64,000 bases of DNA from Sediminibacterium roseum (GTDB lineage Bacteria > Bacteroidota > Bacteroidia > Chitinophagales > Chitinophagaceae): the NCBI RefSeq assembly GCF_009939005.1, contig NZ_JAACJS010000011.1:214096-278095 (forward strand), read 5' to 3'. Positions 33,801 through 59,094 of this stretch are shown piece by piece. Made by a program: the position numbers and the translations under genes. Every line of letters starts with the position of its first letter. Position 1 is the first letter of the stretch. The notes under the pieces were generated by a model. That model was not told where the DNA came from and did no database searches. It saw nothing but the letters and a program-made list of their open reading frames with translations.

Positions 33801-34282
33801 GTACCTGAAAAGTTCAATGAACCTGATTGAACGCCGTCGATGTAAATACGCATTGTGTATCCATCATAAGTAGCGGCAACGTGGTGCCATGCATTCAGCT
33901 TGTCTGCACCGTAAGGAATTCTCAAAGTTCTCCAGCCGGCACCGTTGATGTTCAGCAGGAACTCGATCGTGGTCCAGCCATTGATCGTTCTCGGGAAGAT
34001 ATAACTGTTGCTCGCAGCAGCGGCAGATTTGGAAACCACATCCTGCACACCCGTCGACTTTGCCGGTTTGATCCAGGCTTCGATGGTCAGGTTTGAAGTT
34101 ACATTCATCGCAGGCTTAACCGGGATGATAACGTAATCGTTCTGTCCATCAAAACTCAGCGCGCCCGCCTGTTGTGCCTGTGTGTTATTCACAAACAAAA
34201 CAACTGCAAGCATGCAAAATGCAAGTGATTTTCGGAGTGAGTTCAGCCTTAAGATTGCCTTTGCGTAAAAATTCAGGTTCAT
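27845..34282 (-). CDS. Giant LamG/Ig-repeat surface protein with T9SS sorting domain and Cys/His-rich insertions
   Basis: The 2145-residue protein has a signal peptide (about 1-36). Two LamG-like concanavalin domains follow, with SFDGQNDYVIIP near 43 and LDGIDDYVSTGYN near 362. Each is followed by Ig/PKD-like segments such as ATYSWTGPNNFTS. Next come HYR-type repeats, BIG2-like repeats (TGGTWSSSDPTVATVNASG) and at least four repeats of about 50 residues built on NNCGTSTLT...WSNG...GTYTVTQT. A Cys-packed insertion is encoded at about 29727-29930 and a His/Cys-rich loop at about 28270-28425. The last 80 residues (MPNPSTTYFTLKF, RKVIQLIKV) are a type A T9SS sorting signal. It is probably a surface adhesin or glycan-binding protein. 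It is transcribed alone and ends at a strong terminator. Confidence 0.9.
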   Translation of the reverse strand: MNLNFYAKAILRLNSLRKSLAFCMLAVVLFVNNTQAQQAGALSFDGQNDYVIIPVKPAMNVTSNLTIEAWIKPAKSTGVQDVVSKSAAAASNSYIFPRTINGWTTIEFLLNINGAGWRTLRIPYGADKLNAWHHVAATYDGYTMRIYIDGVQSGSLNFSGTITVNNNPLALGNQAGLGEYYGGAVDEVRIFNRALSGCEISSSMFCELSGNENGLIAYYKFNQGILGVPNPLETGLNDSGPNGANGTLTNFGLLGTGLLSNWTDGNPAISSTVCTPVTPPTVTAGALLSLVPVSGTLNLTAESLPGATYSWTGPNNFTSNLQNPSIEGVGLNATGTYTVTATVNGCSGTSSVVITVAPRASGLNLDGIDDYVSTGYNEKLNSDAFSVEAWIYPTDANITNQNVVTNSDIYSQTGFKFPKTNDKWNSFTFELSVDNSWKELTANFPSSAINKWNHLAATFDGYFMRIYLNGILVGTQEVTGTYTKSSRNLMIGNNDERSEFFKGTVDEVRVWGRAVSQCEIINNMKTCELNGDNNGLANQVALTAYYRFNQGLINVDNAAYATLADSSGNNAHGTLQNFRLTGTTSNWVDGKVYGLCDYFPLPLLTASANGSVFQTGSTAKLFAEYGNNDVYNWEGPNSFASSTQNPVLNNVQEIQSGTYTVSTPYTNCVVTASTRIKVSDLPQIIADGPTSFCPSGSVQLTSATTGTAYQWFKNDVAINGATSVSYVASQSGNYSVKITNGSVVIISAPLVVTVVPDVTAPVPNVASLPTINVTAPATVTTVPTATDACRGAITGTTTSPLTFNTSGTYTIVWNYNDGNGNTSTQNQTVIVARPVDVTAPVLTVPANITVAANGATCNAVVTFAATATEESEDPTVIITYSQNPGTAFPIGTTTVNVTAKDAAGNTSTGSFTVTVTASVVAPITGTTTVCLGSSTTLATTSTGGTWSSSDPTVATVNASGVVTGVAAGSANITYTNACGASASATVTVNARPVAPTVTAVNNCGSTVLTASNTTGTVNWNTGATGSSITVTTAGTYTATQTVNGCASTPGTVVAAPKAAPATPVVNVVNNCGTSTLTVANPTGTLVWSNGETTTSITVSNSATYTVTQTSNGCTSAAGSGVSAPKAAPSAPTVTVVNNCGTSTLTASNTTGSILWSNGASTASINVSAAGTYTVTQTVNGCVSANGSGVAAPKAVQATPVITVANNCGSTTLTSNTSGTWSNGATGTSITVTSGGNYSVTATNAAGCSAAATTAVTVNTNPSVAAITGNTSVAAGATTQLSDATTGGVWSSNSANATVNASGLVTGVNVGTATITYTVTNGAGCSTSVSTVVTVTPSVPTCTAPVFTSAASNISVNSCANATASYSLTVGGTSPALTYTFSGATTASGSGTGSGAIFNVGVTTVTVRAINNCGSISQTFTVTVKSLAAPVPTVASLPTITGQCSAGLTITSTPTNNNACNDDCRCCRTVCHCKTSSCKCRDWNLRSIVAYLFNLYFGGSSDDSHDCDGDDNGGTGGNTAGNAPTARDACSGATIVGTTTDPLTYTAQGTYTINWKFVDARGNVTIQPQTVIVNDTQAPVPQVSSLPAITGTCGLAITSVPKANDACAGVVNGTTTDPLTYTAKGTYTIRWTYTDGNGNTSTQNQTVNITGGPVATITATGTSNDLCGGLVLTGSSSVSGASFKWMSGNTVLGTSSQLSLGQDDQEGTYSLYVTAGGCTSTAATYTYSKQGLAGSYTILASKSAMFGKYSKVSSGSVGITTTSGSVSFKGYTAVNGAGSFVKAPYISKTSSDNILKTVSGVATVTGVPAMQYNTSNANSYSNYTTAQYATVSLSGNYKTLKIKKGTYATLSGTIFGTIDLEEGASVRFTNSTINIDKLLVEDGARDGYYSYVRFAPNTSVRVSTQVSIGSQVLVNPDNYRVTFFVDDKSCDEERFTVKGADTRFNANIIMPDGKLFVTSTDCDNDYKSNCGHGAHSSWQCPHNGHNHKACDHRSHNTSDCNDDVYMTGTFVVEMLESKGNTVIWNSYDCSSSPVPVTVVNKSVPAAVSTQAVTSESASAATSEEELKVTVMPNPSTTYFTLKFESKYETPINMRVMDANGRVVDAQTKIGSNSTIRVGANYASGTYFAEMTQGGTRKVIQLIKVRG

Positions 34283-48094: not shown

Positions 48095-48355
48095 TTAAGG
48101 AATGCAGTTATTGTTTATGCAGTTTTGATTAACAAGCGTTCCGGCAAAACTACAGGCCTCGTTTGTACACGATTCATTCATTCCGGAATCACAACCACGG
48201 TTATTGCAGGAAGGGTTGGAACAGGAAGGATTGGGATTCTCGCCTTCAGAAAACCCACCCCTCGTTAAAACCGAGGTGAGGATCACGAGATCTGCGGCCG
48301 GGCGCCCGGCACCGCTCCGCAATTTTTCTGCCAATCTTGTTAGTTTGGTCGGCAT
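48095..48355 (-). CDS. RiPP precursor peptide 1 (NxxC-repeat, GG leader)
   Basis: The start MPTKLTRLAEKL at 48355 matches the leader pattern of its paralogues; an in-frame start at 48382 is less likely. The 86-residue peptide has a leader ending at Gly33-Gly34 and a core of 52 residues with seven Cys. Spacings between the Cys are 4, 4, 7, 4, 10 and 4 residues. All seven have Asn three positions before them. The seven-residue spacer is of the type xxGxNxx. The leader has no Cys. It is the last of four precursor genes on the minus strand, 32 bases after precursor 2. Likely processed by the C39 transporter after modification by the radical SAM enzyme. Confidence 0.85.
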   Translation of the reverse strand: MPTKLTRLAEKLRSGAGRPAADLVILTSVLTRGGFSEGENPNPSCSNPSCNNRGCDSGMNESCTNEACSFAGTLVNQNCINNNCIP

Positions 48356-48387
48356 ACGTAAACTTTTATAGTTGAACAGCAATCTTC

Positions 48388-48642
48388 CTAGGTAAAACAG
48401 GATGTGTTGTTACATCCGGCATTATCGGTTCCGGTTGCAGTTGCATTACATTGGTTGTTTCCGCAACTAAAATTGTATCCCTCGTTGCAGAAATTGTTAT
48501 TACAGGTATCATTTCCACATGGAGGTTCTGTTTCCTGCGGATTAAGCCCTCCCCGGATACCGGAGAGATTCACGAAACTCCCGGTAAAGGCCTGGTTACC
48601 GGCATAAAGTTTTTCACGAAGAAGAGTGAGTTTGGTTTTCAT
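48388..48642 (-). CDS. RiPP precursor peptide 2 (NxxC-repeat, GG leader)
   Basis: This 84-residue peptide starts MKTKLTLLREKL and has a double glycine at residues 31-32. The core holds seven Cys with spacings of 4, 4, 7, 4, 11 and 4. Six have Asn at -3; the first Cys has Glu there (TEPPC). The architecture is nearly the same as precursor 1, pointing to tandem duplication. The core otherwise consists of Asn, Gly, Thr and acidic residues with two Phe and one Tyr. Confidence 0.86.
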   Translation of the reverse strand: MKTKLTLLREKLYAGNQAFTGSFVNLSGIRGGLNPQETEPPCGNDTCNNNFCNEGYNFSCGNNQCNATATGTDNAGCNNTSCFT

Positions 48643-48726
48643 TGTATTTATTTTGATAAAGACATTGACAGGTAATGCGTTGGCACCATCGAATCATCAA
48701 GCGCACTACGGATGAGTTGATGACTA

Positions 48727-48984
48727 TTAATAACAACCTGAATTGTAGCAAGACTCGTTGGTGGTACCTGAATCCCCTGACGCCGAACACCCGGTATTTG
48801 AACAATCAGTATTATAACCTGAGGTACAACCATCGTTATTACACGCCGGATTCGGTTTCGGTTCATTGGAACCACCATGATACAATACGGCCATACCGGG
48901 AGAAATTTGTCTCCACTCCGAAGACAGGTTTCCAAACGCACCTGTTTTTAATTTTGCTAACAGCAGGTTTATTTTTCCAGACAT
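48727..48984 (-). CDS. RiPP precursor peptide 3 (NxxC-repeat, GG leader)
   Basis: This 85-residue peptide starts MSGKINLLLAKLK and has Gly37-Gly38 followed by SNEP, close to the GGNEP seen in later precursors. Six Cys are spaced 4, 7, 4, 12 and 4 residues apart. All six have Asn at -3. The seven-residue spacer is TSGYNTD. It ends in Cys-Tyr. It is 84 bases upstream of precursor 2 and 55 downstream of precursor 4. Confidence 0.86.
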   Translation of the reverse strand: MSGKINLLLAKLKTGAFGNLSSEWRQISPGMAVLYHGGSNEPKPNPACNNDGCTSGYNTDCSNTGCSASGDSGTTNESCYNSGCY

Positions 48985-49039
48985 AGAAAGGATTTTAATC
49001 AGAAAAAAACACCAGGTCTATCAAACTGGCATGTTGGCA

Positions 49040-49306
49040 TTAACCGGTACAACCTGAATTGGTACAGGAATCATTGATGGTGCCATTTCCAGATGCATCG
49101 CATCCTGCATTGTAGCAGCTGCCATTATATCCCCATGCACAAAACTCGTTGGAACAATTTCCATTGGGTTTGCTTTCGCCTTCCTTTTCAAAGCCTCCGA
49201 TGATCAGGATGGCTCGCGCAGTGACAATGGTTTGCAGATCCTGAACATGATTAACCCCAAGGTTTCCGGTTAGCGCTTCAATAAGGTGTCCGAGCTTCCT
49301 TGTCAT
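49040..49306 (-). CDS. RiPP precursor peptide 4 (NxxC-repeat, GG leader)
   Basis: This 88-residue peptide starts MTRKLGHLIEAL and has Gly37-Gly38 after a hydrophobic stretch (ARAILII). Six Cys are spaced 4, 7, 4, 11 and 4 residues apart, and all six have Asn at -3. The spacer AWGYNGS fits the xxGxNxx type. It is nearly collinear with precursor 3. It lies 24 bases downstream of the 230-residue secreted protein gene, which may be the first gene of this minus-strand unit. Confidence 0.86.
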   Translation of the reverse strand: MTRKLGHLIEALTGNLGVNHVQDLQTIVTARAILIIGGFEKEGESKPNGNCSNEFCAWGYNGSCYNAGCDASGNGTINDSCTNSGCTG

Positions 49307-49330
49307 ATAGTTTAGTTTATAATGCGAAAT

Positions 49331-50023
49331 CTATTTTTTATTCTGCCTGGAATCAAGGATCAGGTCCTTTATTCCTTTTTCAAGAACCACGTAAGAATAC
49401 AGTTCACCTGTTTGGCAGGCATTGTCTATGAACACCCGGTGAATCAACCTCGCGCTGGAGGAAGCGTCTTCCCAGTTTATGATCGTGGTGCGCCCGACCT
49501 TCGTCTCCCTGGGTGCCGCAGGCGTTGTTCTGCACGCGAGGGTATCCACCCTGTTTGTAATCTCGGCTGAGGCATGGGCTGCCGCCAACTTTTCATAAAC
49601 TTCGGGTGTGGCGTCTGGCTGGATCATGATGAGCCTGTCGTTCCGGAATACCAGGCAGACGTTTTTCAACGTAATCCCATCTCCTTTGAGCCAGGGAACA
49701 AAAACCGGCTCCATCCCTTTTTTCCCGAGTTCAAAAAACAATTCCCGCCCGAAGAAGCGATAAAGATTCCTGCTGTCTTCCTTTTCAATAATGTAAACAA
49801 AACCCGTGGTATCGGGGATTGGGTATCGGGTTAAAATCTCTTTTTCTCCCGTCCCTTGTGATGGCTGCTTCGCTGAATTCACGATCCGTACAGGTAAACC
49901 TACCGCCTCGATCATCCGGGCCTTGGTCATACCAATAAACAAATTTCCTACCCTTCCTGCCGTCTGTCCAAACAAGGCAAACGTTCCCAGAACATTTAGT
50001 AATAAAACAACAAGCTTTTTCAT
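49331..50023 (-). CDS. Secreted protein of unknown function at the head of the precursor cluster
   Basis: The ATG at 50023 starts a signal peptide (MKKLVVLLLNVLGTFALFGQ); a start seven codons upstream is less apt. The mature part begins GRVGNLFIGMTKARMIEAVGLP, a segment resembling the BamE/SmpA-like IGMTkaqv motif. The rest is not recognised. It contains two Cys. It lies directly upstream of four precursor genes and divergent from the radical SAM gene. It could therefore serve the RiPP system (periplasmic handling or immunity), but this is only position-based. Confidence 0.65.
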   Translation of the reverse strand: MKKLVVLLLNVLGTFALFGQTAGRVGNLFIGMTKARMIEAVGLPVRIVNSAKQPSQGTGEKEILTRYPIPDTTGFVYIIEKEDSRNLYRFFGRELFFELGKKGMEPVFVPWLKGDGITLKNVCLVFRNDRLIMIQPDATPEVYEKLAAAHASAEITNRVDTLACRTTPAAPRETKVGRTTIINWEDASSSARLIHRVFIDNACQTGELYSYVVLEKGIKDLILDSRQNKK

Positions 50024-50141
50024 CGGGCGCACTTTGAATAACAAGAAACAAGATCTGTACCAAATGTATAAAATAAATATTTCATTTAAAAAAAATAATA
50101 TAAAATAAAAAACGTATTTTAAATTCGAAAATATAACTGCT

Positions 50142-51506
50142 ATGAAAACATCTCACTACATTATTTTTACTGATCCTTTTTCAGAGTTCCAGAATGGTAT
50201 CGAATACGAAAAACAGATCGCCTTTTCTACCAGGTCCAGGCAGTCACTGCTTTTGTCAAGCCAAATCTGCAGGCAGCTACAGGTGGGCGAATATGATGAT
50301 ATTGAGTCCGATGTAATGGATGAACTGACGAAACACGGATTTATTGTACCCGACGAAGCGAATGAGCTGACCGAGATTATCAAAGAGAACAAAGCAACCA
50401 TACAGGACGATTCCCTTCTTTATTTTGTGATCCAGCCTACTGCTTACTGCCAACTGGGTTGCGATTACTGCGGGCAGGAGCACGTTAAGAAAAACCTGCC
50501 GCATAAAACATATGATTCGATCCTGCAACGTCTCGAAAAAAAATTCATACCCGGAAAACACAAAGCGCTCCGCATAGGATGGTTTGGTGGAGAGCCATTG
50601 GTTGGGATGACCCAGATCCGGGAGCTGACTGCCCTGTTGATGGATTTTGCGGAGAAACACGAACTTAAGTATTCAGCCAAGATTGTTACCAACGGGCTAA
50701 GCCTTAAAGAAAACATATTCGAGGAATTGACCCAGAAACTCAGCTGTCGCGAATTCGAGGTTACCCTTGATGGTATCGCGGAGTTCCATGACCAGCGGCG
50801 CCATACAAAATCAAAAGAGAACACGTTTGATATTATATTCAAAAACCTCAAAACGATCATCGACAGGGAGGATTTTACAAAGGCAAATTACCGGCTTTCC
50901 ATCCGGTGCAATGTTGACAAACGGAACTGGGAAGGAGTGAGCCCGCTTATCCAACTACTGGCAGACAATGGCTTCGTAGAAAAATTGGCTTACTTCTATC
51001 CTATCGGTGTTTATTCCTGGGGAAATGATGCGCATACCGGTTCTCTGACAAAAGAGGAGTTCGCAGAAAAAGAAATTGATTGGCTGATAGAAATGATCAA
51101 AGTTGGCTTCAGGCCTTCCCTGCTTCCGGGGCGTGTCAAATCTGTTTGCCTGGCGGTTTCGCAAACCTCGGAGATGTTTGACGCATTCGGCAACATTTTT
51201 AATTGCACAGAAGTATCTTATGTTCCGAAATACGTAGAATCGGGATTTGTGCTCGGTAACCTAAATACGCCAACCCTCGACACAAATGTGCGCCCTTTAA
51301 GCGATTGGAACGACCGGATATTAAACGACGGTATTCCTTGTTCTTCCTGTCGGATGCTTCCGGTCTGCGGCGGTGCCTGTCCGAAATCCTGGAGTGAAGA
51401 TATGCGTGCGTGCCCTTCCAATAAGTTCAACATCAAAGAAAAACTGATGCTCTCTTACCTTTCGACGAAAGAATCTTTTCTCGAAACAGTACAGACGATC
51501 GATTGA
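50142..51506 (+). CDS. Radical SAM/SPASM peptide-modifying enzyme
   Basis: The 454-residue protein has the radical SAM cluster motif CQLGCDYC (Cys103, 107, 110) and GWFGGEPL (148-153). The C-terminal SPASM region has Cys336, 355, 400, 403, 409, 413 and 424 for auxiliary iron-sulfur clusters. Residues 1 to about 85 lack the barrel pattern and look like a PqqD-type leader-binding domain (LLLSSQICRQLQVGEYDD, then KHGFIVPDE). SPASM maturases of this type make thioether or C-C links in ribosomal peptides. It is the only modifying enzyme beside eight NxxC precursors, so I infer that it installs Cys-Asn crosslinks. The 100 bases upstream are extremely AT-rich and divergent, forming the promoter region. 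The exporter gene follows after 118 bases. Confidence 0.92.
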   Translation: MKTSHYIIFTDPFSEFQNGIEYEKQIAFSTRSRQSLLLSSQICRQLQVGEYDDIESDVMDELTKHGFIVPDEANELTEIIKENKATIQDDSLLYFVIQPTAYCQLGCDYCGQEHVKKNLPHKTYDSILQRLEKKFIPGKHKALRIGWFGGEPLVGMTQIRELTALLMDFAEKHELKYSAKIVTNGLSLKENIFEELTQKLSCREFEVTLDGIAEFHDQRRHTKSKENTFDIIFKNLKTIIDREDFTKANYRLSIRCNVDKRNWEGVSPLIQLLADNGFVEKLAYFYPIGVYSWGNDAHTGSLTKEEFAEKEIDWLIEMIKVGFRPSLLPGRVKSVCLAVSQTSEMFDAFGNIFNCTEVSYVPKYVESGFVLGNLNTPTLDTNVRPLSDWNDRILNDGIPCSSCRMLPVCGGACPKSWSEDMRACPSNKFNIKEKLMLSYLSTKESFLETVQTID

Positions 51507-51515
51507 CGAACCTGT

Positions 51516-51545
51516 TTGGGCTGCCTGCGAACCGGGCAGCCAAAA
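51516..51545 (+). promoter_or_regulatory. Hairpin between the radical SAM and exporter genes
   Basis: TTTGGGCTGCC and GGCAGCCAAA form a stem of about ten base pairs with one bulged G and a loop of about eight bases. It lies just after the radical SAM stop. No U-run follows on the plus strand, so full termination is unlikely. It may instead stabilise the upstream mRNA or lower read-through into the exporter gene. Confidence 0.45.
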
Positions 51546-51624
51546 ACGGTGTACATTACCGGGCGCCCCTGATAAGGGTGTAAATTCATGTGTCCCGATA
51601 CGTGCAACACATTATATTTAAGCG

Positions 51625-53847
51625 ATGAAGTTTCCTTTTTATAAGCAACTTGACAGCGTTGATTGTGGTCCGACCTGTTTGAAGATCCTTGCCAGGTTTC
51701 ACGGAAAGAATTACGCGCTTGACTACCTGCGCGGGCTCTGTTTTATCAACAAAGAAGGCGTGAGCCTGCTTTCGCTCGCCCAGGCGGCCGAACACATCGG
51801 GTATACAACGTTGAAATTGAAGATCACATTCGATCGTTTGGTGTCCGATGCTCCACTTCCATCGATCCTGTTGTGGGATACCAACCATTACGTGGTATTG
51901 TATGAAGTAAAAAAAAATAAATCAGGAGAGATTACGCACCTCCGGGTATCTGATCCTAAAAGAGGACTTGTAAAACTCAGCAAAAAGGATTTTCTGCACC
52001 ATTGGATCGCACCCGATTCAAAAGACATGGGAGTGGCGCTGCTGGTAGAACCTTCAGAAAATTTCGACACGTTGCTTGACGAAAAGGGGCTTGAAATAAA
52101 ACGCCCTTCGGATCTGAAATTCATCCTGAATTATATTTTGAGGTACCGGCGGTATTTTTTCCAGTTACTGCTGGGAATTATTACCTCTTCAATGATAGCG
52201 CTGATCTTCCCGTTTCTGACCCAGAATATCGTAGACATTGGGATCAATAAAAAAGACATTGGTTTTATATCATTGATATTGATCGCACAACTCGTGCTGT
52301 TCCTGAGCAGTACAACGCTCGATCTTTTGCGGAGGCAACTGCAGATACACATCAGCGCAAGGATCAATATATCAATCATATCCGATTTCCTCGCCAAATT
52401 AATGCGGTTACCGATCCGGTTCTTCGACTCGAAAAATATTGGCGATATCATAAACCGGATCAACGACCAGAAGAGGATAGAAACTTTTATCACGAGCTCC
52501 GTTCTCAATACAGTGCTTCTTTTTTTCAACTTCGCCGTGCTTACAGCCCTCCTGTTCTACTATAACAAGACCATCCTGCTTGTTTTCCTGGGAGGAACCG
52601 CCTGCACCTTTGTGTGGGTCTATTTTTTTATGCAGAAACGGAAGGAAATGGACTACCGGATCTTCAGAACATCGTCTTCTACCACGGAGAAGATGTATGA
52701 AATGGTAAACAGCATGCAGGAGATCAAGCTGAATAACTTTGAAGCCTATAAGAAAACGGAATGGCAGAAGAACCAGGTGGAACTTTTTGAGATCAGCCTG
52801 GCAAGTACGAAACTGGAACAATACCAGACAATCGGCTCGGTCTTTTTTACCCAGCTGAAGAACATTCTGGTAACCTACATCAGCGCCAAAGCGGTGATCA
52901 ACGGCGATATCTCGCTGGGTATGATGTTGAGCATTACAATGATCATAGGCCAAATGAATAACCCGGTGGAGGAATTTATCTCTTTTTTCAAATCGTACCA
53001 GTTTGCCAGAATAAGCCTGGACAGGATGAACGAAGTTTACGTAAAACCCGACGAGGAAGAGAATGCCCTTTATCACGCAATTCCATCACCCAACGATCCC
53101 GGTTATCAGGAATTCATAAGCTTCCGGAATGTAAATTTTCAATATGAGGGGCCACAGTCGCCTTTGGTATTGAATGATCTTTCTGTGGATATACCCATCG
53201 GGAAGACCACAGCGATCGTCGGATCCAGCGGGAGCGGCAAAACGACGCTTCTGAAATTACTGCTTAAATTTTATGAACCGCGCTCAGGCTCCATTACTAT
53301 ATGTGGTACAGATCTTAAAGATATATCTGCTTACTGGTGGCGCGGGCAATGCGGAATTGTAATGCAGGAAGGATTTGTTTTTTCCGATACCATTGAACGG
53401 AATATCATCACAAACCAGGAAACTGCAGAACCTGAACGGTTGATGCAGGCTGCGAAAGTAGCCTGCATCGATGATTATATAACCGGTACGCCGTTTGGCT
53501 ACCAGACCAAAATAGGCGCAAGCGGTTCAGGGCTGAGTACCGGGCAAAAACAAAGGATCCTGATCGCCAGGGCTGTTTACAAGGATCCGAAATTCTTCTT
53601 TTTCGATGAAGCAACCAGTTCGCTGGATACAAACAACGAACGGATGATCGTGAACAACCTTAACAGCCTGCTCGCAGGGAAAACGGCCGTTGTGATCGCG
53701 CATCGTTTGAGCACCGTTAAGAATGCCGCTAAAATATTGGTGCTGGACAATGGCCGGATCGTAGAGAGCGGTAGCCACAATGAGCTTATCAAATTAAAAG
53801 GATTTTATTTCAACCTGATCAAAGACCAACTGGAACTTGGTTCCTGA
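51625..53847 (+). CDS. C39-peptidase ABC exporter (leader-cleaving RiPP transporter)
   Basis: The 740-residue protein has three parts. An N-terminal C39 peptidase carries Cys14 (DSVDCGPTCL), His88 (NHYVVLYE) and Asp110 (VSDPKRG) as a complete catalytic set. Six membrane helices follow (about 170-440), then an ABC ATPase with Walker A GSSGSGKT at 533-540, signature LSTGQ at 637-641, Walker B FFFFDE near 657-662 and switch His693. Such proteins cut double-glycine leaders and export the core across the inner membrane. All eight precursors here have a GG leader, so it is the clear partner. The membrane-fusion-like gene follows after ten bases. Confidence 0.95.
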   Translation: MKFPFYKQLDSVDCGPTCLKILARFHGKNYALDYLRGLCFINKEGVSLLSLAQAAEHIGYTTLKLKITFDRLVSDAPLPSILLWDTNHYVVLYEVKKNKSGEITHLRVSDPKRGLVKLSKKDFLHHWIAPDSKDMGVALLVEPSENFDTLLDEKGLEIKRPSDLKFILNYILRYRRYFFQLLLGIITSSMIALIFPFLTQNIVDIGINKKDIGFISLILIAQLVLFLSSTTLDLLRRQLQIHISARINISIISDFLAKLMRLPIRFFDSKNIGDIINRINDQKRIETFITSSVLNTVLLFFNFAVLTALLFYYNKTILLVFLGGTACTFVWVYFFMQKRKEMDYRIFRTSSSTTEKMYEMVNSMQEIKLNNFEAYKKTEWQKNQVELFEISLASTKLEQYQTIGSVFFTQLKNILVTYISAKAVINGDISLGMMLSITMIIGQMNNPVEEFISFFKSYQFARISLDRMNEVYVKPDEEENALYHAIPSPNDPGYQEFISFRNVNFQYEGPQSPLVLNDLSVDIPIGKTTAIVGSSGSGKTTLLKLLLKFYEPRSGSITICGTDLKDISAYWWRGQCGIVMQEGFVFSDTIERNIITNQETAEPERLMQAAKVACIDDYITGTPFGYQTKIGASGSGLSTGQKQRILIARAVYKDPKFFFFDEATSSLDTNNERMIVNNLNSLLAGKTAVVIAHRLSTVKNAAKILVLDNGRIVESGSHNELIKLKGFYFNLIKDQLELGS

Positions 53848-53857
53848 CGATACCGCT

Positions 53858-54544
53858 ATGAGAAATAGAAAAGACAGCCCTGCCACCGATTTTTTTTCTT
53901 CCATTATTACCGAAAGGCCAACTTGGCTCGTCAGGAATGGACTGCTGGTTTTTTTTGTACTTACCGTGCTTTTTATCCTGGCCTCCAATTTCATCCGTTA
54001 TCATGAAGAGGTTCCGCTACCCATCAATATGAACGCAGCTTACGGCATCTATTTTCCGAAAGCTGGTGATGATAGTACACGGTTTTTCAGAAAGCTGGGG
54101 CAGGTAATGCCGGCTACCGGCCCCCACCCCTTGAACGCCGTTGATGTTAAGGACACCAGGGAGAACGGATATCGTTTTGATGTAATTATACAGGATCAAA
54201 AAGCAATTGTGGTATGCAGGGACAGCATTCCGTCTTTCCAGAGCACCGTTTCAACTCCGTTGGCCGACCGCATTCACATCGGCGATCTGGTTACCATCAC
54301 CGCCGCAGGCAACGGCGCCCGTTCAACCTTTAGCGGAAAAATAACGGCAAAGACACCCGCAGGCAACGGCGCATCGTTTCACCTGGCTATCTCTCCCGCC
54401 GGTCAGACCGCACCTTTTGCCCTGCTGCTCAGTGCCGCCTATTCGAATCAACTGACGTGCACCCTTCCGCTTAGCGATAAAATGCTTTTTTCGATCCTGT
54501 CCGATAAACTTTCGAGCCGGGGCAGGTTGCCGGTTGCAAAATAA
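53858..54544 (+). CDS. Short membrane-fusion-like (HlyD-related) protein
   Basis: The ATG at 53858, ten bases after the exporter stop, gives 228 residues; an in-frame start at 53837 would overlap the exporter. The N-terminus ERPTWLVRNGLLVFF and one membrane helix (about 27-48), then SNFIRYHEEV, matches the anchor of Bacteroidota HlyD-type fusion proteins. The C-terminal half (IHIGDLVTITAAG, SGKITAKTPAG) looks like their beta-barrel domain. Usual relatives are about 430 residues. The lipoyl and coiled-coil hairpin part that would reach TolC is missing, with no frameshift visible. It probably assists the exporter in the periplasm. Confidence 0.75.
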   Translation: MRNRKDSPATDFFSSIITERPTWLVRNGLLVFFVLTVLFILASNFIRYHEEVPLPINMNAAYGIYFPKAGDDSTRFFRKLGQVMPATGPHPLNAVDVKDTRENGYRFDVIIQDQKAIVVCRDSIPSFQSTVSTPLADRIHIGDLVTITAAGNGARSTFSGKITAKTPAGNGASFHLAISPAGQTAPFALLLSAAYSNQLTCTLPLSDKMLFSILSDKLSSRGRLPVAK

Positions 54545-54574
54545 AACTGCCCTCCGTTTAGGTGGAGGACAGTT
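54535..54574 (-). terminator. Terminator of precursor 5, inside the 3' end of the fusion-protein gene
   Basis: AACTGCCCTCC (54545-54555) pairs with GGAGGACAGTT (54564-54574) with one mismatch. On the minus strand the stem runs into TTTTATTTTGC. It lies 26 bases after the precursor 5 stop and overlaps the last codon of the plus-strand gene. It may also end plus-strand transcription less efficiently. Confidence 0.65.
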
Positions 54575-54600
54575 GATGAATTGGCCGGTGCCGATTCATT

Positions 54601-54867
54601 TTAGGTACAAACACGGTTCCCGTTGCCGGTACACTGGTTGTTCGTACAAATATTGTTATAGTTGGTGGAAGATGTGGCACAACCGTTATTGGTACAAGAC
54701 TGGTTCGTGCATGCCCAATCTGCCAGCGGTGGTTCTTCCGGTTCATTTCCGCCAAACATTGCGATACTCTGCATTTCTGTTATGTTCCACATGCCTTTCC
54801 CAGGATCCAACGGATCCTGCTCACCAGCAAGGCGTGACATCAGAACTTTGATCTTGGTCCCGTTCAT
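54601..54867 (-). CDS. RiPP precursor peptide 5 (NxxC-repeat, GGNEP leader)
   Basis: This 88-residue peptide starts MNGTKIKVLMSRLAG and has AMFGGNEP with the double glycine at 39-40. Six Cys are spaced 4, 4, 10, 4 and 7 residues apart. Five have Asn at -3; the first has Asp (ADWAC). It is the only precursor with a Trp close to the first Cys in the core and has an acidic spacer (EEPPLAD) after the cut site. It is 38 bases downstream of precursor 6. Confidence 0.87.
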   Translation of the reverse strand: MNGTKIKVLMSRLAGEQDPLDPGKGMWNITEMQSIAMFGGNEPEEPPLADWACTNQSCTNNGCATSSTNYNNICTNNQCTGNGNRVCT

Positions 54868-54905
54868 AACTGTTTATTTAGGTTTAAAAATAAATTGACA
54901 CTTTA

Positions 54906-55175
54906 TTACTCACATGAACCATTGTTCGTACAATGATTGTTATTACAAAGGGTATTGCTTGCGTTTCCATGGCAGGTGTCGTTACTGCAACTGTCATTTT
55001 TCCCATCAACGCAAGTGGCGTTGTTACACGCTGAATTTGTGCAGTTCCCGTTAACCGTCGGCTCGTTTCCCCCGTACATCGCAAGCGCCATATTTTCGGA
55101 GATGTTAATAAATTGATCCCCTGGCAGCCCGTTACTGTTAAGAATTGAGGCCTTGAGTCGGGTGAGTTTTGACAT
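54906..55175 (-). CDS. RiPP precursor peptide 6 (NxxC-repeat, GGNEP leader)
   Basis: This 89-residue peptide starts MSKLTRLKASIL and has AMYGGNEP with the double glycine at 35-36. It has the most Cys of the set, eight, with spacings of 4, 4, 7, 4, 8, 4 and 5 residues. All eight have Asn at -3. The seven-residue spacer is VDGKNDS. It is read divergently from the outer-membrane protein gene; the 139 bases between them are AT-rich and carry both promoters. Confidence 0.87.
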   Translation of the reverse strand: MSKLTRLKASILNSNGLPGDQFINISENMALAMYGGNEPTVNGNCTNSACNNATCVDGKNDSCSNDTCHGNASNTLCNNNHCTNNGSCE

Positions 55176-55314
55176 AAAAAATGATTTTAATACCTTGAAG
55201 TTATATAAAAAAATTATATCTTGATTTTTTTATGAATATTTTATTTTTTATATAATAACTATCCCTACTATCGGATTTTTCAGGATATTTAACCTATCGT
55301 TATCCCACCAACCT

Positions 55315-58104
55315 ATGAGAAAGATTTTAATATCTATTTGGCTTATTTCATGCGTCTTCGGAGCGGCACTGGCCCAGGTTTCTAAGGGAACGATCAAAGG
55401 ACAGCTCGTCCAGGACGGCGGAACGAAGCCCGTGGCGCTGGCCACCATTACTGTTTTCAATGCAAAGGATACCTCCCTGATTACTTACAGGTTGAGCAAC
55501 GACAATGGAGAGTTTTCAATACCTGACTTGCCACTGGGGCTTCCGCTGCGGATACTATTTACGCACGTAGGACGAAAAATCATAAGGCAGGAATTCACGA
55601 TCAGTTCTGTTGCGGTTGTTTCGTTGGGTAAAGTGGTGATGCCTAAAGACACGGCATCGCTGGGCGAAGTGATCATAAGGGCCGAGATTCCCCCGGTAAT
55701 TGTTCGCAATGATACGGTTGAGTTCAATGCCGCGGCTTTCAAAACGTTACCGAACGCATTGGTAGAGGATCTGCTCAAAAAACTGCCCGGCTTGCTTGTT
55801 GACCGGGACGGGAATATTACCTACAACAACAAACGGGTTAATAAAATCATGGTCGACGGACGCGATTTTTTTGGAAGTGATCCCAAGATTGCTTCGCGTA
55901 ATCTTCCCGCCAACATCATTGATAAGATCCAGGTTACCGACGATAAGGATGCAAAATACATCAACCCTACTGCGCTTGAATGGGAAATACCACAGGTCAT
56001 CAACCTGAAATTCAAGAAGGACATCAAGAAAGGATGGTTTGGTAAAGTGTTCGGAGGATATGGCACCCATAAACAGTACGAAGCAGGCGCAATGATTAAT
56101 TCATTCCGCGACACGCTGCAGATGAGCTTCATCGGTTTTGCAAACAACATCAATAAAACGGGTTTCAGCTCCAAAGACCTATTAGAACTCGGCGGGTTCA
56201 ACAGGAGCGGATTCAACAACATGAACGGCAATGGGTCGGGTGCGCTGAATATTGACGGGGTTTCGTTTGGGGGCGGAACAACAGGCAGAGCCAGCCAGGC
56301 TGGTCTCGGAACGAACATCAATACGATCCTTGGCAAAGGCGTTGTTTTCAACCTCCAGTATTTTTACGGTAATGAACATACCAATATCGACAGGTTGGTG
56401 AAAGCGGACCAGTTTATCAAAGACACTACTCTTTCAACCCTCTCTAAGTCGCTCACCACCGTAAACACCAATTCTCACCAGCTTTCCGCGTCGTTGCGTA
56501 AGGTGTATTCGCCTTCGCGCAATCTTTATTTCAAACCGACAGTCAATTACATAAATATGGCCAGTGACGCGGGCATATCAACTTCTGCGGTAACCAATAA
56601 AAACGGGTTGGTAAGTGTCGTGAACAATGCGGAAAATATACTGCGCAGCCGGTGGGAATACAGCCATGACCTGATCTATACCGATTCGCGTTTCAGGAAA
56701 CCCGGAGGCGTGTTTCGCATTTCAAACAGCTTCTCAGCCTCCAACGGATTGTCAAACCAGTTTAACCGTTACGACGCAACCTATTACGTGTCAACCGCCG
56801 TTAGTACTTTTGTGACTCAACTGCGCAGAACGGACGCACCATCGTTCCTGTCGCGGTCAAATTTTTCTTATGCCAATCCCCTTTCGAAAAAAACCAGGCT
56901 GACGGGAATGGCTTCCATAGATAATTTTTCAGATGAACAGGATATCATAACGTTCAACAAAGAAAATACAACCAACGATTATACTGCTAAAGTTGATTCT
57001 GTTTCTGGGCAGTTCAGCCGCACCGGTTATAAAAGCCTTGTGAACGGTACATTGTCATGGACCATCAACAATGACCTGTTCCTGAATATCGGGGCCAACT
57101 GGCAATGGATTAATATACAGAATAAGTTTAAGGGTAAGCCCACCATCAGCCAGGATTACCATTACATCTGGCCCGCCGTACGGTTGCAACTGCGGCGCAA
57201 TGTTTTGTCGTATAACGCCCGCACCATTGAGCCGCAGGCTGCAGACCTCCAGCCCGTACTGAACAACACCAACCCGCTTTTTCTTACACTCGGGAACATT
57301 TCCCTAAAGCCATACACGCTGCATACGATCGGTTTTACTACAGGCCAGTACGATGGAAGAAAACCACTTACTTTCAATATCGGCCTGACCTATACTATTT
57401 TCCAGGATGCCATCGTGAGGGCCAGGGCGATAGACAGCAAGGGCGTTCAATTTTCGCAACCGGTTAATGTGGATGGCGTTTCTTCATTCAGCATCTATGG
57501 CGGCGTGTCTGACCGGATCAAATTCAACAAAGACTGGACACTTGTTGCGCGGCTACTGAACACTTCCAGCTATTTCCACAATGTAGTGCTGGTAAACAAC
57601 AAACGCAGTATTTCAGAAACCTTTACAAACACGCCTTCGATCGAGTTCAATTTCAACTGGAGGGACAAAATTGAATTTTATCCCAAATACAGCCTCGCAA
57701 ACAACAATACCGCATATGAAGACCCGTCGTTTTCAAACCTGCATTACACGACACACCGCATAGAGAACGGCCTCGTGCTGCGCCTGGTTAAACGCCTGGT
57801 GTTCGAGGCCAGTGTGGACTACCAGTATAACCCAATGTTACCGGTCGGAATCAGAAAGGATATGACCCTGCTTAATGCAGCTGTGAATTATGTTTTCTTG
57901 AAAGACGACCGCGGGGTGCTGAAGCTCTCGGGTTATGACCTGCTCAATCAGAATACGGGCATCGCAAGGATGATTACCGAGAATATCATCCAGGTGACGG
58001 AGACACAACTGATCCGGCAATATTTTCTCATCAGTTTAACTTATAACATCAGGAAATTCGGCACCAAAACAGTGGGCGGCAAAGAGGGCCTTTTCAGATT
58101 ATAA
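55315..58104 (+). CDS. TonB-dependent-receptor-like outer membrane beta-barrel protein
   Basis: The 929-residue protein has a signal peptide (1 to about 20, ending ALAQ) and a carboxypeptidase-regulatory-like beta domain (about 24-105; GTIKGQLVQDGG, NDNGEFSIPDLPLG). A plug-like domain follows (LPNALVEDLLKKLPGLLVDRDGN-type sequence, VNKIMVDGRDFFG, IIDKIQVTDD), then a long beta-barrel ending FLISLTYNIRKFG. This is the architecture of Bacteroidota outer membrane TonB-like transporters without a typical SusD partner. It sits inside the precursor cluster, between precursors 6 and 7, and may move the peptide across the outer membrane or act as a receptor or immunity protein. Confidence 0.86.
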   Translation: MRKILISIWLISCVFGAALAQVSKGTIKGQLVQDGGTKPVALATITVFNAKDTSLITYRLSNDNGEFSIPDLPLGLPLRILFTHVGRKIIRQEFTISSVAVVSLGKVVMPKDTASLGEVIIRAEIPPVIVRNDTVEFNAAAFKTLPNALVEDLLKKLPGLLVDRDGNITYNNKRVNKIMVDGRDFFGSDPKIASRNLPANIIDKIQVTDDKDAKYINPTALEWEIPQVINLKFKKDIKKGWFGKVFGGYGTHKQYEAGAMINSFRDTLQMSFIGFANNINKTGFSSKDLLELGGFNRSGFNNMNGNGSGALNIDGVSFGGGTTGRASQAGLGTNINTILGKGVVFNLQYFYGNEHTNIDRLVKADQFIKDTTLSTLSKSLTTVNTNSHQLSASLRKVYSPSRNLYFKPTVNYINMASDAGISTSAVTNKNGLVSVVNNAENILRSRWEYSHDLIYTDSRFRKPGGVFRISNSFSASNGLSNQFNRYDATYYVSTAVSTFVTQLRRTDAPSFLSRSNFSYANPLSKKTRLTGMASIDNFSDEQDIITFNKENTTNDYTAKVDSVSGQFSRTGYKSLVNGTLSWTINNDLFLNIGANWQWINIQNKFKGKPTISQDYHYIWPAVRLQLRRNVLSYNARTIEPQAADLQPVLNNTNPLFLTLGNISLKPYTLHTIGFTTGQYDGRKPLTFNIGLTYTIFQDAIVRARAIDSKGVQFSQPVNVDGVSSFSIYGGVSDRIKFNKDWTLVARLLNTSSYFHNVVLVNNKRSISETFTNTPSIEFNFNWRDKIEFYPKYSLANNNTAYEDPSFSNLHYTTHRIENGLVLRLVKRLVFEASVDYQYNPMLPVGIRKDMTLLNAAVNYVFLKDDRGVLKLSGYDLLNQNTGIARMITENIIQVTETQLIRQYFLISLTYNIRKFGTKTVGGKEGLFRL

Positions 58105-58247
58105 AAAAAATTTATTGAAAAAAATTTCCATTTATAGGCGTCATTACATATCTTTCTGTTGTTAATATGTGTAAGCTGGTGGCAGGGCTTCTGTTCTACG
58201 AATCGTCACTGTACTTTCACATCCTTATTCATAATAAATATCGACCT

Positions 58248-58496
58248 ATGAAACAAAACAAGCTGGCCTCGCTGAAAGATCTTCTGAATTCAGAATCTTC
58301 CTTTCCCTCGGGGCAGGTCAATTTAAGCGACGCGTTTGCAGCCGCCATGTTCGGCGGGAACGAACCGGTACCGGGGCAGAACAATACCTGCGACAACTAC
58401 AGTTGCCATCATGGGGTAAACGACGGCTGCACTAACTTTGTGTGCGGTGGTGACGATATGGGCAATATCAGTTGCAAAAACTCTTTTTGTTACTGA
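58248..58496 (+). CDS. RiPP precursor peptide 7 (NxxC-repeat, GGNEP leader)
   Basis: The ATG at 58248 (MKQNKLASLKDLL) matches the paralogue leaders; the longer frame from 58167 begins with a GTG-free hydrophobic stretch that is not leader-like. The 82-residue peptide has AMFGGNEP with glycines at 36-37. Six Cys are spaced 4, 7, 4, 9 and 4 residues apart, all with Asn at -3. The spacer HHGVNDG fits the xxGxNxx type. It starts 143 bases after the outer-membrane protein stop on the same strand. Confidence 0.87.
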   Translation: MKQNKLASLKDLLNSESSFPSGQVNLSDAFAAAMFGGNEPVPGQNNTCDNYSCHHGVNDGCTNFVCGGDDMGNISCKNSFCY

Positions 58497-58540
58497 TCCG
58501 AAAAATATTAACCTGCTTATTCATTTGCAAAAACTAATCG

Positions 58541-58804
58541 ATGTCAAAAAAACTATACAGCCTTTTTGAAAAGCTGAATCAGGGAGTAGAGGGCCCTACG
58601 CAATCCGGGTATGAAAATATCTCAGATAAGACCTCACAGTTTATTTTGGGTGGAAATGAGCCGTTATCGAACAACAGCTGCACCAACGACCATTGTTCAA
58701 ATGCCACCTGCTCAGCACCGGATACCAATGCTACATGTACAAATGGCGAATGTTCAACATCGAACGGCCAGGTCAACAACGGGTGCAAAAACACCTCCTG
58801 CTGA
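58541..58804 (+). CDS. RiPP precursor peptide 8 (NxxC-repeat, GGNEP leader)
   Basis: This 87-residue peptide starts MSKKLYSLFEKLNQG and has FILGGNEP with glycines at 37-38. Seven Cys are spaced 4, 4, 8, 4, 10 and 4 residues apart, all with Asn at -3; the last Cys is the C-terminal residue. It lies 44 bases after precursor 7 and is followed by a strong terminator, so the two plus-strand precursors form one unit. Confidence 0.88.
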   Translation: MSKKLYSLFEKLNQGVEGPTQSGYENISDKTSQFILGGNEPLSNNSCTNDHCSNATCSAPDTNATCTNGECSTSNGQVNNGCKNTSC

Positions 58805-58832
58805 CAAATAAACGGATGTATTTTTCGTACGT

Positions 58833-58888
58833 AAAGGCGATTAATGGTGGCTGCGGCTTCTCCCACCATTGGCCGCCTTTATTTTTTT
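58833..58888 (+). terminator. Strong intrinsic terminator ending the RiPP locus
   Basis: AAAGGCGATTAATGGTGG (58833-58850) pairs with CCACCATTGGCCGCCTTT (58863-58880) with few mismatches, and ATTTTTTT follows. It ends the transcript of precursors 7 and 8. Confidence 0.85.
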
Positions 58889-59023
58889 AATTCCGGCGAT
58901 CGGTTTTTCGACCGTTCCAACAAGGCTCCGGCAACCTGGAATTGGATCAACGAACGTGGATGATAAGCCGCCCCCGGGGGGGTAAATAAATAAGGTTCTC
59001 ACTTTCGTGAAAACCTTACTACG

Positions 59024-59094
59024 AGGTCCCGAGCGGATTCGAACCGCTGTGGAAGCTTTTGCAGAGCTCTACCTAGCCACTCGGTCACAGGACC
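59024..59094 (-). tRNA. tRNA-Cys (anticodon GCA)
   Basis: On the minus strand GGTCCTG pairs with CGGGACC (one T-G) with discriminator T. The anticodon loop CTGCAAA gives GCA, and the T arm AGCGGTTCGAATCCGCT is intact. Discriminator U is the expected identity element for bacterial tRNA-Cys. CCA is not encoded. It lies 135 bases beyond the Cys-rich RiPP locus, which is probably coincidence. Confidence 0.92.

What the first reader, a model, noticed from the sequence alone, without database searches (positions are those of the whole stretch)
48095..58888. A multi-precursor RiPP locus with one radical SAM/SPASM enzyme and a tandem N-x-x-C core code
Eight small genes encode GG-leader peptides with 53 core cysteines in total. 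I checked each: 51 have Asn exactly three residues before, and the two exceptions (first Cys of precursors 2 and 5) have Glu or Asp there. Every core carries 6-8 such units. A SPASM radical SAM enzyme, a C39 exporter, a fusion-like protein and an outer membrane barrel protein lie among the genes. Radical SAM RiPP maturases are known that make Cys-to-beta-carbon thioethers (ranthipeptides); from memory, one Firmicutes subfamily is named for an NxxC motif and gets a Cys-Asn link. A Bacteroidota version with up to eight tandem units per peptide and eight substrates for one enzyme would be a new subclass as far as I can tell.
Basis: partly seen in the sequence, partly recalled or inferred. Interest (0 to 1): 0.95.

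Follow-up and report, generated by a model that had tools for sequence, protein, structure and literature searches.

The report
Eight-peptide Asn-x-x-Cys ring-making locus
A Bacteroidota bacterium carries eight small peptide genes whose cores are built of Asn-x-x-Cys units, grouped around one radical SAM enzyme that is predicted to tie each cysteine to its asparagine as a small ring; relatives of the enzyme in other phyla sit beside peptides with the same unit, so this is likely a widespread and so far uncharacterised way of making ringed peptides.

Summary
In detail: eight GG-leader peptides, 53 core cysteines, 51 with Asn at -3, the other two with Glu and Asp (shuffles with Cys fixed: mean 13.5, maximum 25 of 20,000). 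Small correction: precursor 5 has five NxxC units, so the range is 5-8. Codons are mixed and 50 of 51 unit DNA sequences differ, so this is not a DNA repeat. The enzyme has CxxxCxxC, seven SPASM cysteines and a confident model whose best solved match is CteB, a thioether synthase. It reaches no NCBIfam cut-off, nor do ten relatives tested. Main new result: the NxxC unit follows the enzyme family. In hand-picked precursors beside 53 related enzymes Asn is at -3 of 160 of 285 cysteines (shuffles 34.6), in Bacteroidota, Proteobacteria and Cyanobacteria, while one 16-row enzyme clade almost lacks it. Best reading: tandem Asn(i)-Cys(i+3) thioether rings, probably at the beta-carbon. That bond is known as a single ring in Streptococcus (NxxcB); six Cys-Asp rings are known in freyrasin. 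Chemistry, product and function are untested here. A new variant of the ranthipeptide kind.

The parts
48095..48355 (-). precursor 1 (GG leader 34 aa, core with 7 NxxC)
   Evidence: the listed ORF starts at TTG 48382, likely ATG at 48355
48388..48642 (-). precursor 2 (core 7 Cys, 6 NxxC; first Cys has Glu at -3)
48727..48984 (-). precursor 3 (6 NxxC)
49040..49306 (-). precursor 4 (6 NxxC)
49331..50044 (-). 237-aa protein with signal-peptide-like start, no family; heads the minus-strand run with precursors 4-1
   Evidence: no Pfam or NCBIfam hit; no tblastn match at 1e-5 in the loci of relatives examined, only in the own genome
50142..51506 (+). radical SAM/SPASM maturase, 454 aa; CxxxCxxC at 103-110, SPASM Cys 336, 355, 400, 403, 409, 413, 424; N-terminal strand-helix domain (residues 7-88) of likely RRE type
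51625..53847 (+). C39 peptidase-containing ABC exporter (PCAT), 740 aa
   Evidence: PF03412, PF00664, PF00005; full-length homologues of 45-50% identity in 24 of the 63 loci L002-L064
53837..54544 (+). 235-aa protein with one predicted membrane segment, weakly HlyD-like; predicted membrane-fusion partner of the exporter
   Evidence: no convincing family hit; weak N-terminal similarity and like position to 240-243 aa proteins in four relatives, two of which were scanned and hit HlyD_3
54601..54867 (-). precursor 5 (6 Cys, 5 NxxC; first Cys has Asp at -3)
54906..55175 (-). precursor 6 (8 NxxC)
55315..58104 (+). outer-membrane beta-barrel protein with carboxypeptidase-regulatory-like N-terminus, 929 aa
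   Evidence: PF14905; PF14905 proteins of about 800-850 aa near related enzymes in five of five loci scanned, chosen by position
58248..58496 (+). precursor 7 (6 NxxC)
   Evidence: the listed ORF starts upstream at 58167
58541..58804 (+). precursor 8 (7 NxxC)

Best explanation
The locus encodes eight GG-leader peptides whose 53 core cysteines sit in N-x-x-C units (51 of 53), and the one radical SAM/SPASM enzyme among them is predicted to join each cysteine sulfur to the asparagine three residues earlier, likely at its beta-carbon, after which a C39 exporter would cut the leader at GG and send the ringed peptide out. Shown by sequence: the units, the leaders, the enzyme's cluster motifs, the exporter, and that N-x-x-C is the unit that stays constant beside most enzyme relatives while the distance between units varies. 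Inferred: binding of the leader by an N-terminal RRE-like domain; hydrogen abstraction at the Asn (or Asp/Glu) side chain; sulfur bonding with the help of the SPASM clusters; repetition along the core to give 5-8 four-residue rings (a loss of about 2 Da each); passage of the outer membrane with the HlyD-like protein and the PF14905 barrel. The biological role is open; the cores are short, Asn-rich and acidic (net -3 to -5), unlike cationic bacteriocins, and eight differing cores on one frame suggest a peptide set used against, or towards, varied partners.
For: 51 of 53 cysteines with N at -3 against a null mean of 13.5, maximum 25; mixed Asn codons (27 AAC/24 AAT) and Cys codons (31 TGT/22 TGC), 50 different 12-mers among 51, no tandem DNA repeat over a precursor, so the residues and not the DNA are kept. 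Across hand-picked precursors of 53 other loci N is at -3 of 160 of 285 Cys, in 40 of the 53 loci at least once; the next best offset is +3 with 52. With one precursor per locus 77 of 146, shuffles mean 17.1, maximum 30 of 1,000. A mechanical, unpicked set of small ORFs just upstream of the enzyme (a few duplicate loci included) gives 122 of 312, while in small ORFs more than 4 kb away N is not among the five commonest residues at any offset. On the enzyme tree the presence of any NxxC needs three changes over the labelled rows; a 100/99-supported clade almost lacks it. On the other side of the tree the chief substitute at -3 is Asp (37 of 72 non-Asn), and the window's two exceptions are Asp and Glu: acceptors that PapB uses (PMC9413430 passages). 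Unit spacing varies (5 in 26 of 43 window intervals; 4 to 13 in 85 of 88 elsewhere) while the N-to-C distance is fixed. Best solved structural match is CteB, a thioether synthase. Complete SPASM cysteine set. C39 exporter beside the enzyme.
Against: No mass or NMR data for this enzyme family were found in what I read. The enzyme is far below every curated cut-off shown (best 25 of 54 families), so function by homology rests on distant kin. N-x-x-C could be a turn motif kept for folding rather than a crosslink site. The 16-row sister clade uses cysteines without N at -3 (1 of 19 precursors has an NxxC), so the enzyme fold alone does not imply NxxC chemistry; Spirosoma endophyticum (L034), outside that clade, also lacks it. 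Precursors outside the window were picked by eye from listings, and the ten loci added were found with a filter that favours [N/D]xxC. 8 of 71 related enzymes in the tree had no candidate precursor in the DNA held. 39 of 63 named loci lack a close full-length C39 homologue in the DNA held. The direct comparison with NxxcB could not be made (its sequence is not held). No outer-membrane TolC-type protein was seen among the locus proteins scanned.
Confidence: 0.66

Rival explanations
1. The enzyme makes sulfur-to-alpha-carbon (sactionine) links: same Asn-Cys pairing, but at the alpha carbon.
For: SPASM enzymes make sactionines too; streptosactin has a pair of four-residue sactionine rings (PMC13361665 passages). 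Sequence alone cannot tell alpha from beta.
Against: Near-strict Asn with Asp/Glu as substitutes points to side-chain chemistry; NxxcB and PapB act at the beta (or, for Glu, gamma) carbon; best solved match is CteB, a non-alpha enzyme (PMC11002830 passages).
Confidence: 0.14
2. The enzyme alters Asn or another residue by another radical reaction (for example carbon-carbon linking or epimerisation), and the cysteines form disulfides or bind a metal.
For: rSAM enzymes also make C-C bonds to the beta-carbon of Asn (triceptides, dynobactin: PMC11002830 passages); paired Cx4C spacing (28 of 53 Cys have Cys at +5) would suit metal or disulfide pairing.
Against: No aromatic partner recurs: the cores hold 2 Trp, 9 Phe and 9 Tyr in 396 residues. 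Unit-to-unit spacing varies among relatives while Asn-to-Cys does not.
Confidence: 0.13
3. The peptides are secreted Cys-rich peptides held by disulfides only, and N-x-x-C is a turn motif; the rSAM enzyme serves something else.
For: Small residues dominate just before the Cys (34 of 51 Gly/Ser/Thr/Ala at -1), as in tight turns.
Against: The enzyme occurs once in the genome and the precursors occur only beside it; the motif follows the enzyme tree across phyla with differing leaders.
Confidence: 0.05

Closest known systems
NxxC subfamily of streptococcal RaS-RiPPs (NxxcA/NxxcB, Streptococcus orisratti, S. porci)
   Same: Asn three residues before Cys; rSAM enzyme; Cys sulfur to Asn beta-carbon reported there (review passages).
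   Different: One ring (Asn20-Cys23) reported there; here 5-8 units in each of eight peptides, GG leaders with a C39 exporter and outer-membrane barrel. Enzyme kinship with NxxcB not tested (sequence not held).
Freyrasin / PapB ranthipeptides
   Same: Six thioether rings in one peptide by one rSAM enzyme; Asp or Glu accepted (passages).
   Different: Cys lies before Asp (CX3D) there, after Asn (NxxC) here; the window enzyme scores 77 bits against a cut-off of 340.
NCBIfam TIGR04463 (rSAM_vs_C_rich) and NF038107 CefB ('Cys-every-fifth')
   Same: Nearest named enzyme families; the name Cys-every-fifth recalls the 26 of 43 five-residue intervals here. Names are the library's.
   Different: 222 and 157 bits against cut-offs of 525 and 600. 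Their substrates were not seen in any call.
SCIFF maturase CteB (5WGG/5WHY)
   Same: Best Foldseek match of the model to solved structures; thioether-forming SPASM enzyme.
   Different: 15-16% identity; makes a Cys-Thr gamma-thioether (passages).
Bacteroides Itf cluster (ItfA-F)
   Same: Bacteroidota rSAM RiPP locus with a C39 exporter and an outer-membrane TonB-dependent transporter (PMC11002830 section 22).
   Different: Makes a Trp-Ile C-C link and has a YcaO partner; the motif given is Ile-Thr-Phe, not a Cys motif.

Membership tests
[quoted passage not shown]
[quoted passage not shown]
   53 of 53 window Cys have Asn, Asp or Glu at -3
[quoted passage not shown]
   needs experiment
Streptococcal NxxC subfamily | N-x-x-C in the core | tested here: met
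Streptococcal NxxC subfamily | a single N-x-x-C ring per peptide | tested here: not met
   5-8 units per peptide; a single bridge in NxxcA (passage)
Streptococcal NxxC subfamily | enzyme orthologous to NxxcB | not testable with these tools
   NxxcB sequence not held; Caruso 2019 not held
PapB family (NF047865) / freyrasin | score above the curated cut-off | tested here: not met
   77.3 of 340 bits
PapB family (NF047865) / freyrasin | Cys-X3-Asp/Glu core motif | tested here: not met
   Asp at Cys+4 in 2 and Glu in 1 of 53
TIGR04463 / NF038107 CefB / TIGR04334 Clo7bot | score above the curated cut-off | tested here: not met
   222/525, 157/600, 152/600 bits; ten relatives also below
TIGR04148/TIGR04149 GG-Bacteroidales rSAM system | enzyme and leader models above cut-off | tested here: not met
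   enzyme 37.9 of 300 bits; no hit for the five of eight window precursors given to the scan
Anaerobic sulfatase maturases | score above the curated cut-off | tested here: not met
   63.2 of 349 bits
SPASM-domain enzymes | CxxxCxxC and seven SPASM cysteines (CX9-15GX4C, CX2CX5CX3C, C; pattern recalled) | tested here: met
   C103/107/110; C336, G350, C355, C400, C403, C409, C413, C424, invariant in 26 aligned homologues and in at least 70 of 72

The most novel reading that the evidence does not exclude
This is the most elaborated member seen of an unnamed, cross-phylum rSAM/SPASM family whose fixed code is [Asn/Asp]-x-x-Cys: one enzyme reads the unit wherever it stands and writes strings of up to eight adjacent four-residue thioether rings into eight different peptides, giving polycyclic, Asn-rich, acidic secreted peptides of a kind not yet seen; a sister clade of the same enzymes has lost this code together with an otherwise constant Phe148 and, in most rows, Tyr286.
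Probability: 0.5. Interest if true: 0.78.

Novelty: new variant of a known kind. Interest (0 to 1): 0.62.

Why it matters
If true, a bond so far described (in what I could read) for a single ring in streptococci would be a common peptide architecture in Bacteroidota, Proteobacteria and Cyanobacteria, written by a family that NCBIfam does not name. The window gives a natural set of 53 substrate sites for one enzyme, which makes its reading rule testable at once, and the sister clade gives a natural contrast for finding the residues that set the register. Stable rings placed every five residues would also be of use for peptide design.

Tried and rejected
Rejected: DNA tandem repeat as the cause. 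Viperin: PADLOC pVip hits cover only the radical SAM core (45 bits). Sulfatase maturase and GG-Bacteroidales rSAM family. Lanthipeptide chemistry: no dehydratase among the ten locus proteins scanned, though one lies near a Runella relative. Orphan precursors elsewhere in the genome: none found.

Led nowhere: a profile search with the eight precursors against 5.8 billion proteins returned five proteins, all listed as the window's own, because the search needs shared 5-residue words. Paper searches for 'Cys-every-fifth', TIGR04463 and Clo7bot found none. Radical SAM with RiPP, Bacteroidota and SPASM found one paper, seen in the listing only; ranthipeptide with radical SAM and Flavobacterium found none; NxxC with radical SAM and thioether found five papers, four listed, of which I saw passages of two. 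That tandem NxxC peptides are not in print is therefore said only of this library and these searches; the 2022 atlas of rSAM RiPPs by Clark and Seyedsayamdost was seen only as a reference and could list them. Passages, not whole papers, were seen of PMC8326336, PMC13361665, PMC9062424, PMC10352776, PMC9413430 and PMC11002830 (of the last also section 22).

The null was partly wrong: the script cut precursor 7 to its last five residues.

63 of 71 non-window rows have candidate precursors (53, ten more); the other eight (L004, L013, L022, L036, L054, L056, L060, L102) have none in the DNA held. One search was made before the duplicates were recognised and holds a few of them.
Full report
What is there. 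Between 48095 and 58804 the window holds eight short genes for peptides of 82-89 aa (with the likely ATG starts), each with a 32-40 aa leader ending in GG and a 45-53 aa core. The cores contain 53 Cys; 51 have Asn three residues earlier, and the two exceptions have Glu (precursor 2) and Asp (precursor 5) there. So every core Cys has an Asn, Asp or Glu at -3. Shuffling the core residues around fixed Cys positions gives 13.5 +/- 2.9 Asn at -3, maximum 25 in 20,000 rounds. Asn and Cys codons are mixed, 50 different unit sequences occur among 51, and no tandem DNA repeat covers a precursor, so selection on residues is the simple reading. Core identity between paralogues averages 0.43 and leader identity 0.35. 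The DNA pattern for N-x-x-C-x-N-x-x-C occurs 59 times in the 4.5-Mb genome, 26 of them in this 10.7-kb locus; the reversed control pattern occurs 18 times.

The enzyme. The 454-aa protein 50142-51506 has Radical_SAM (PF04055), CxxxCxxC at 103-110 and the seven SPASM cysteines, all invariant in 26 aligned homologues. The AlphaFold2 model (mean pLDDT 87.8, pTM 0.88) has an N-terminal block of strands and three helices (residues 7-88) of the kind expected of an RRE; I infer that, it was not tested. Foldseek's best solved matches are CteB chains 5why/5wgg (E 2e-15 to 5e-15). Nearest NCBIfam models are TIGR04463 (222 bits, cut-off 525), CefB 'Cys-every-fifth' (157 of 600) and Clo7bot (152 of 600). 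None of ten relatives taken from across the tree reaches a cut-off either, so the family appears unnamed there. The sequence search found 983 homologues at E <= 1e-30; the best 120 were listed.

Does the motif travel with the enzyme? A scan of one genome per species returned 64 loci, by their titles from Bacteroidota, Proteobacteria and Cyanobacteria for the most part. A mechanical set of small ORFs within 1.5 kb upstream of the enzyme (117 ORFs, 51 loci including a few duplicates, 312 Cys) has Asn at -3 in 122; in 1218 Cys of ORFs more than 4 kb away Asn is not among the five commonest residues at any offset. Precursors picked by eye from listings that did not filter on Asn (53 loci, 96 peptides, 285 Cys) have Asn at -3 in 160, in 40 loci at least once and in 31 at half or more of the Cys; the next best position is +3 with 52. 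With one precursor per locus, 77 of 146 against a shuffled mean of 17.1, maximum 30 of 1,000. On an IQ-TREE tree of 72 enzymes, presence or absence of any NxxC needs three changes over the rows labelled at that point (18 rows were not yet labelled); absence is nearly confined to one clade of 16 rows (100/99 support), in which 12 rows had precursors without any NxxC, one had one (1 of 23 Cys), and three had no precursor found; the thirteenth row without it, L034, lies elsewhere. After adding ten loci found with a filter that favours [N/D]xxC or an LEER leader (so biased), 87 of 90 precursors outside that clade carry at least one NxxC against 1 of 19 inside it, and Asp is the chief substitute at -3 outside it (37 of 72 non-Asn). 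The distance between successive units differs: 5 in 26 of 43 intervals in the window, 4-9 in 81 of 88 elsewhere. The Asn-to-Cys distance is thus what this side of the enzyme family keeps. Outside the window at most six units occur in a peptide (Spirosoma sordidisoli, L002) and at most six precursors beside an enzyme (L026); the window with eight and eight is the extreme of those examined. Two enzyme positions are constant in the 56 rows outside the sister clade and differ within it: Phe148 (14 Tyr, 2 His there) and Tyr286 (13 of 16 changed, mostly Asp, Ser, Asn; 3 keep Tyr), with Val258 weaker.

Accessory genes. A C39 exporter homologue (45-50% identity, about full length) is held in 24 of the 63 loci L002-L064, all of them Bacteroidota by title. 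A PF14905 outer-membrane barrel lies near the enzyme in the five loci scanned (L002, L003, L008, L010, L013, chosen by position). Proteins of 240-243 aa at the place of the window's 235-aa protein hit HlyD_3 in the two scanned; the window protein aligns with them only weakly, best in the N-terminal membrane segment. The 237-aa gene at 49331-50044 has no match in the loci of relatives examined.

Genome setting. The enzyme occurs once in the host genome, and at E <= 1e-30 in 2 of 147 genomes of the genus, 8 of 394 of the family, 14 of 396 of the order and 6 of 395 of the phylum, the host counted in each; the other genus member, G072, belongs to the clade without NxxC. The last precursor ends about 220 bases short of a tRNA-Cys (59023-59094) which, with the next two genes, is present in 25 of 25 fetched loci of the genus, own included (the best 25 of 88 genomes with a match). 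In 10 of 15 relatives examined the next large gene on the far side of that tRNA is a homologue (partial, 44-55% identity, paralogues not excluded) of the large protein at 27845-34282 of the window, so the 24 kb between, with this locus in it, is a variable stretch. GC of the locus is 0.454 against 0.484 for the window. Horizontal gain is likely but not shown. The host is likely of Chitinophagaceae: a genome called 'same family' (G366) has a contig of the same length as the Segetibacter koreensis record (family name recalled).

How it likely works. The Asn/Asp/Glu rule fits side-chain hydrogen abstraction next to an amide or acid followed by sulfur capture, as described for NxxcB (Cys23 to Asn20, beta-carbon; passages of PMC8326336, and PMC13361665) and PapB (Asp beta, Glu gamma; passages of PMC9413430). 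I commit to tandem Asn(i)-Cys(i+3) beta-thioethers, at 0.66 for the pairing and chemistry taken together; the alpha-carbon variant is the main rival. Function is unknown; acidic, Asn-rich, weakly hydrophobic cores argue mildly against membrane-active cationic peptides.

Novelty. Single Cys-Asn beta-thioethers and multiple Cys-Asp thioethers are known; the combination, the cross-phylum family and eight substrates with 5-8 units each were not found in the papers I could search, with the limits given under Tried and rejected. I file it as a new variant of the ranthipeptide kind: it works like one, but membership is not proven, since the defining bond was not testable here.

Noticed in passing
window 59023-59094 and 27845-58804: A tRNA-Cys, in place in 25 of 25 fetched loci of the genus, borders the locus; in 10 of 15 relatives a homologue of the 2145-aa protein at 27845-34282 is the next large gene instead, so the 24 kb between is a variable stretch. 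One tRNA-arm pattern search found no copy of the tRNA end at the other border; integrases were not searched for.
   Followed up: partly
window 49331-50044: 237-aa secreted-looking protein without family, leading the minus-strand run with precursors 4-1; no match in the loci of relatives examined.
   Followed up: partly
L008 3869-6901 and 7452-8663 (Runella sp. MFBS21): A full lantibiotic dehydratase and a second radical SAM protein lie upstream of the NxxC precursors; possible double-modified peptides or a neighbouring cluster.
   Followed up: no
L006, L007, L015, L017, L023, L048, L096, L104: A group of relatives whose precursors have an 'ELESRLEM'-type leader instead of GG, with two further large genes between precursor and enzyme; those found keep N-x-x-C or D-x-x-C, but the filter used favours that.
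   Followed up: partly
L049, L051, L062, L033, L040 (sister enzyme clade): Cys-rich precursors with Asn four, not three, residues before some Cys; a possible change of register tied to enzyme residues 148 and 286.
   Followed up: partly
host genome C8:22162-31522: 14 further hits of the N-x-x-C-x-N-x-x-C DNA pattern in one 10-kb stretch with repeated sequence; possibly the antisense of a repetitive protein gene.
   Followed up: no
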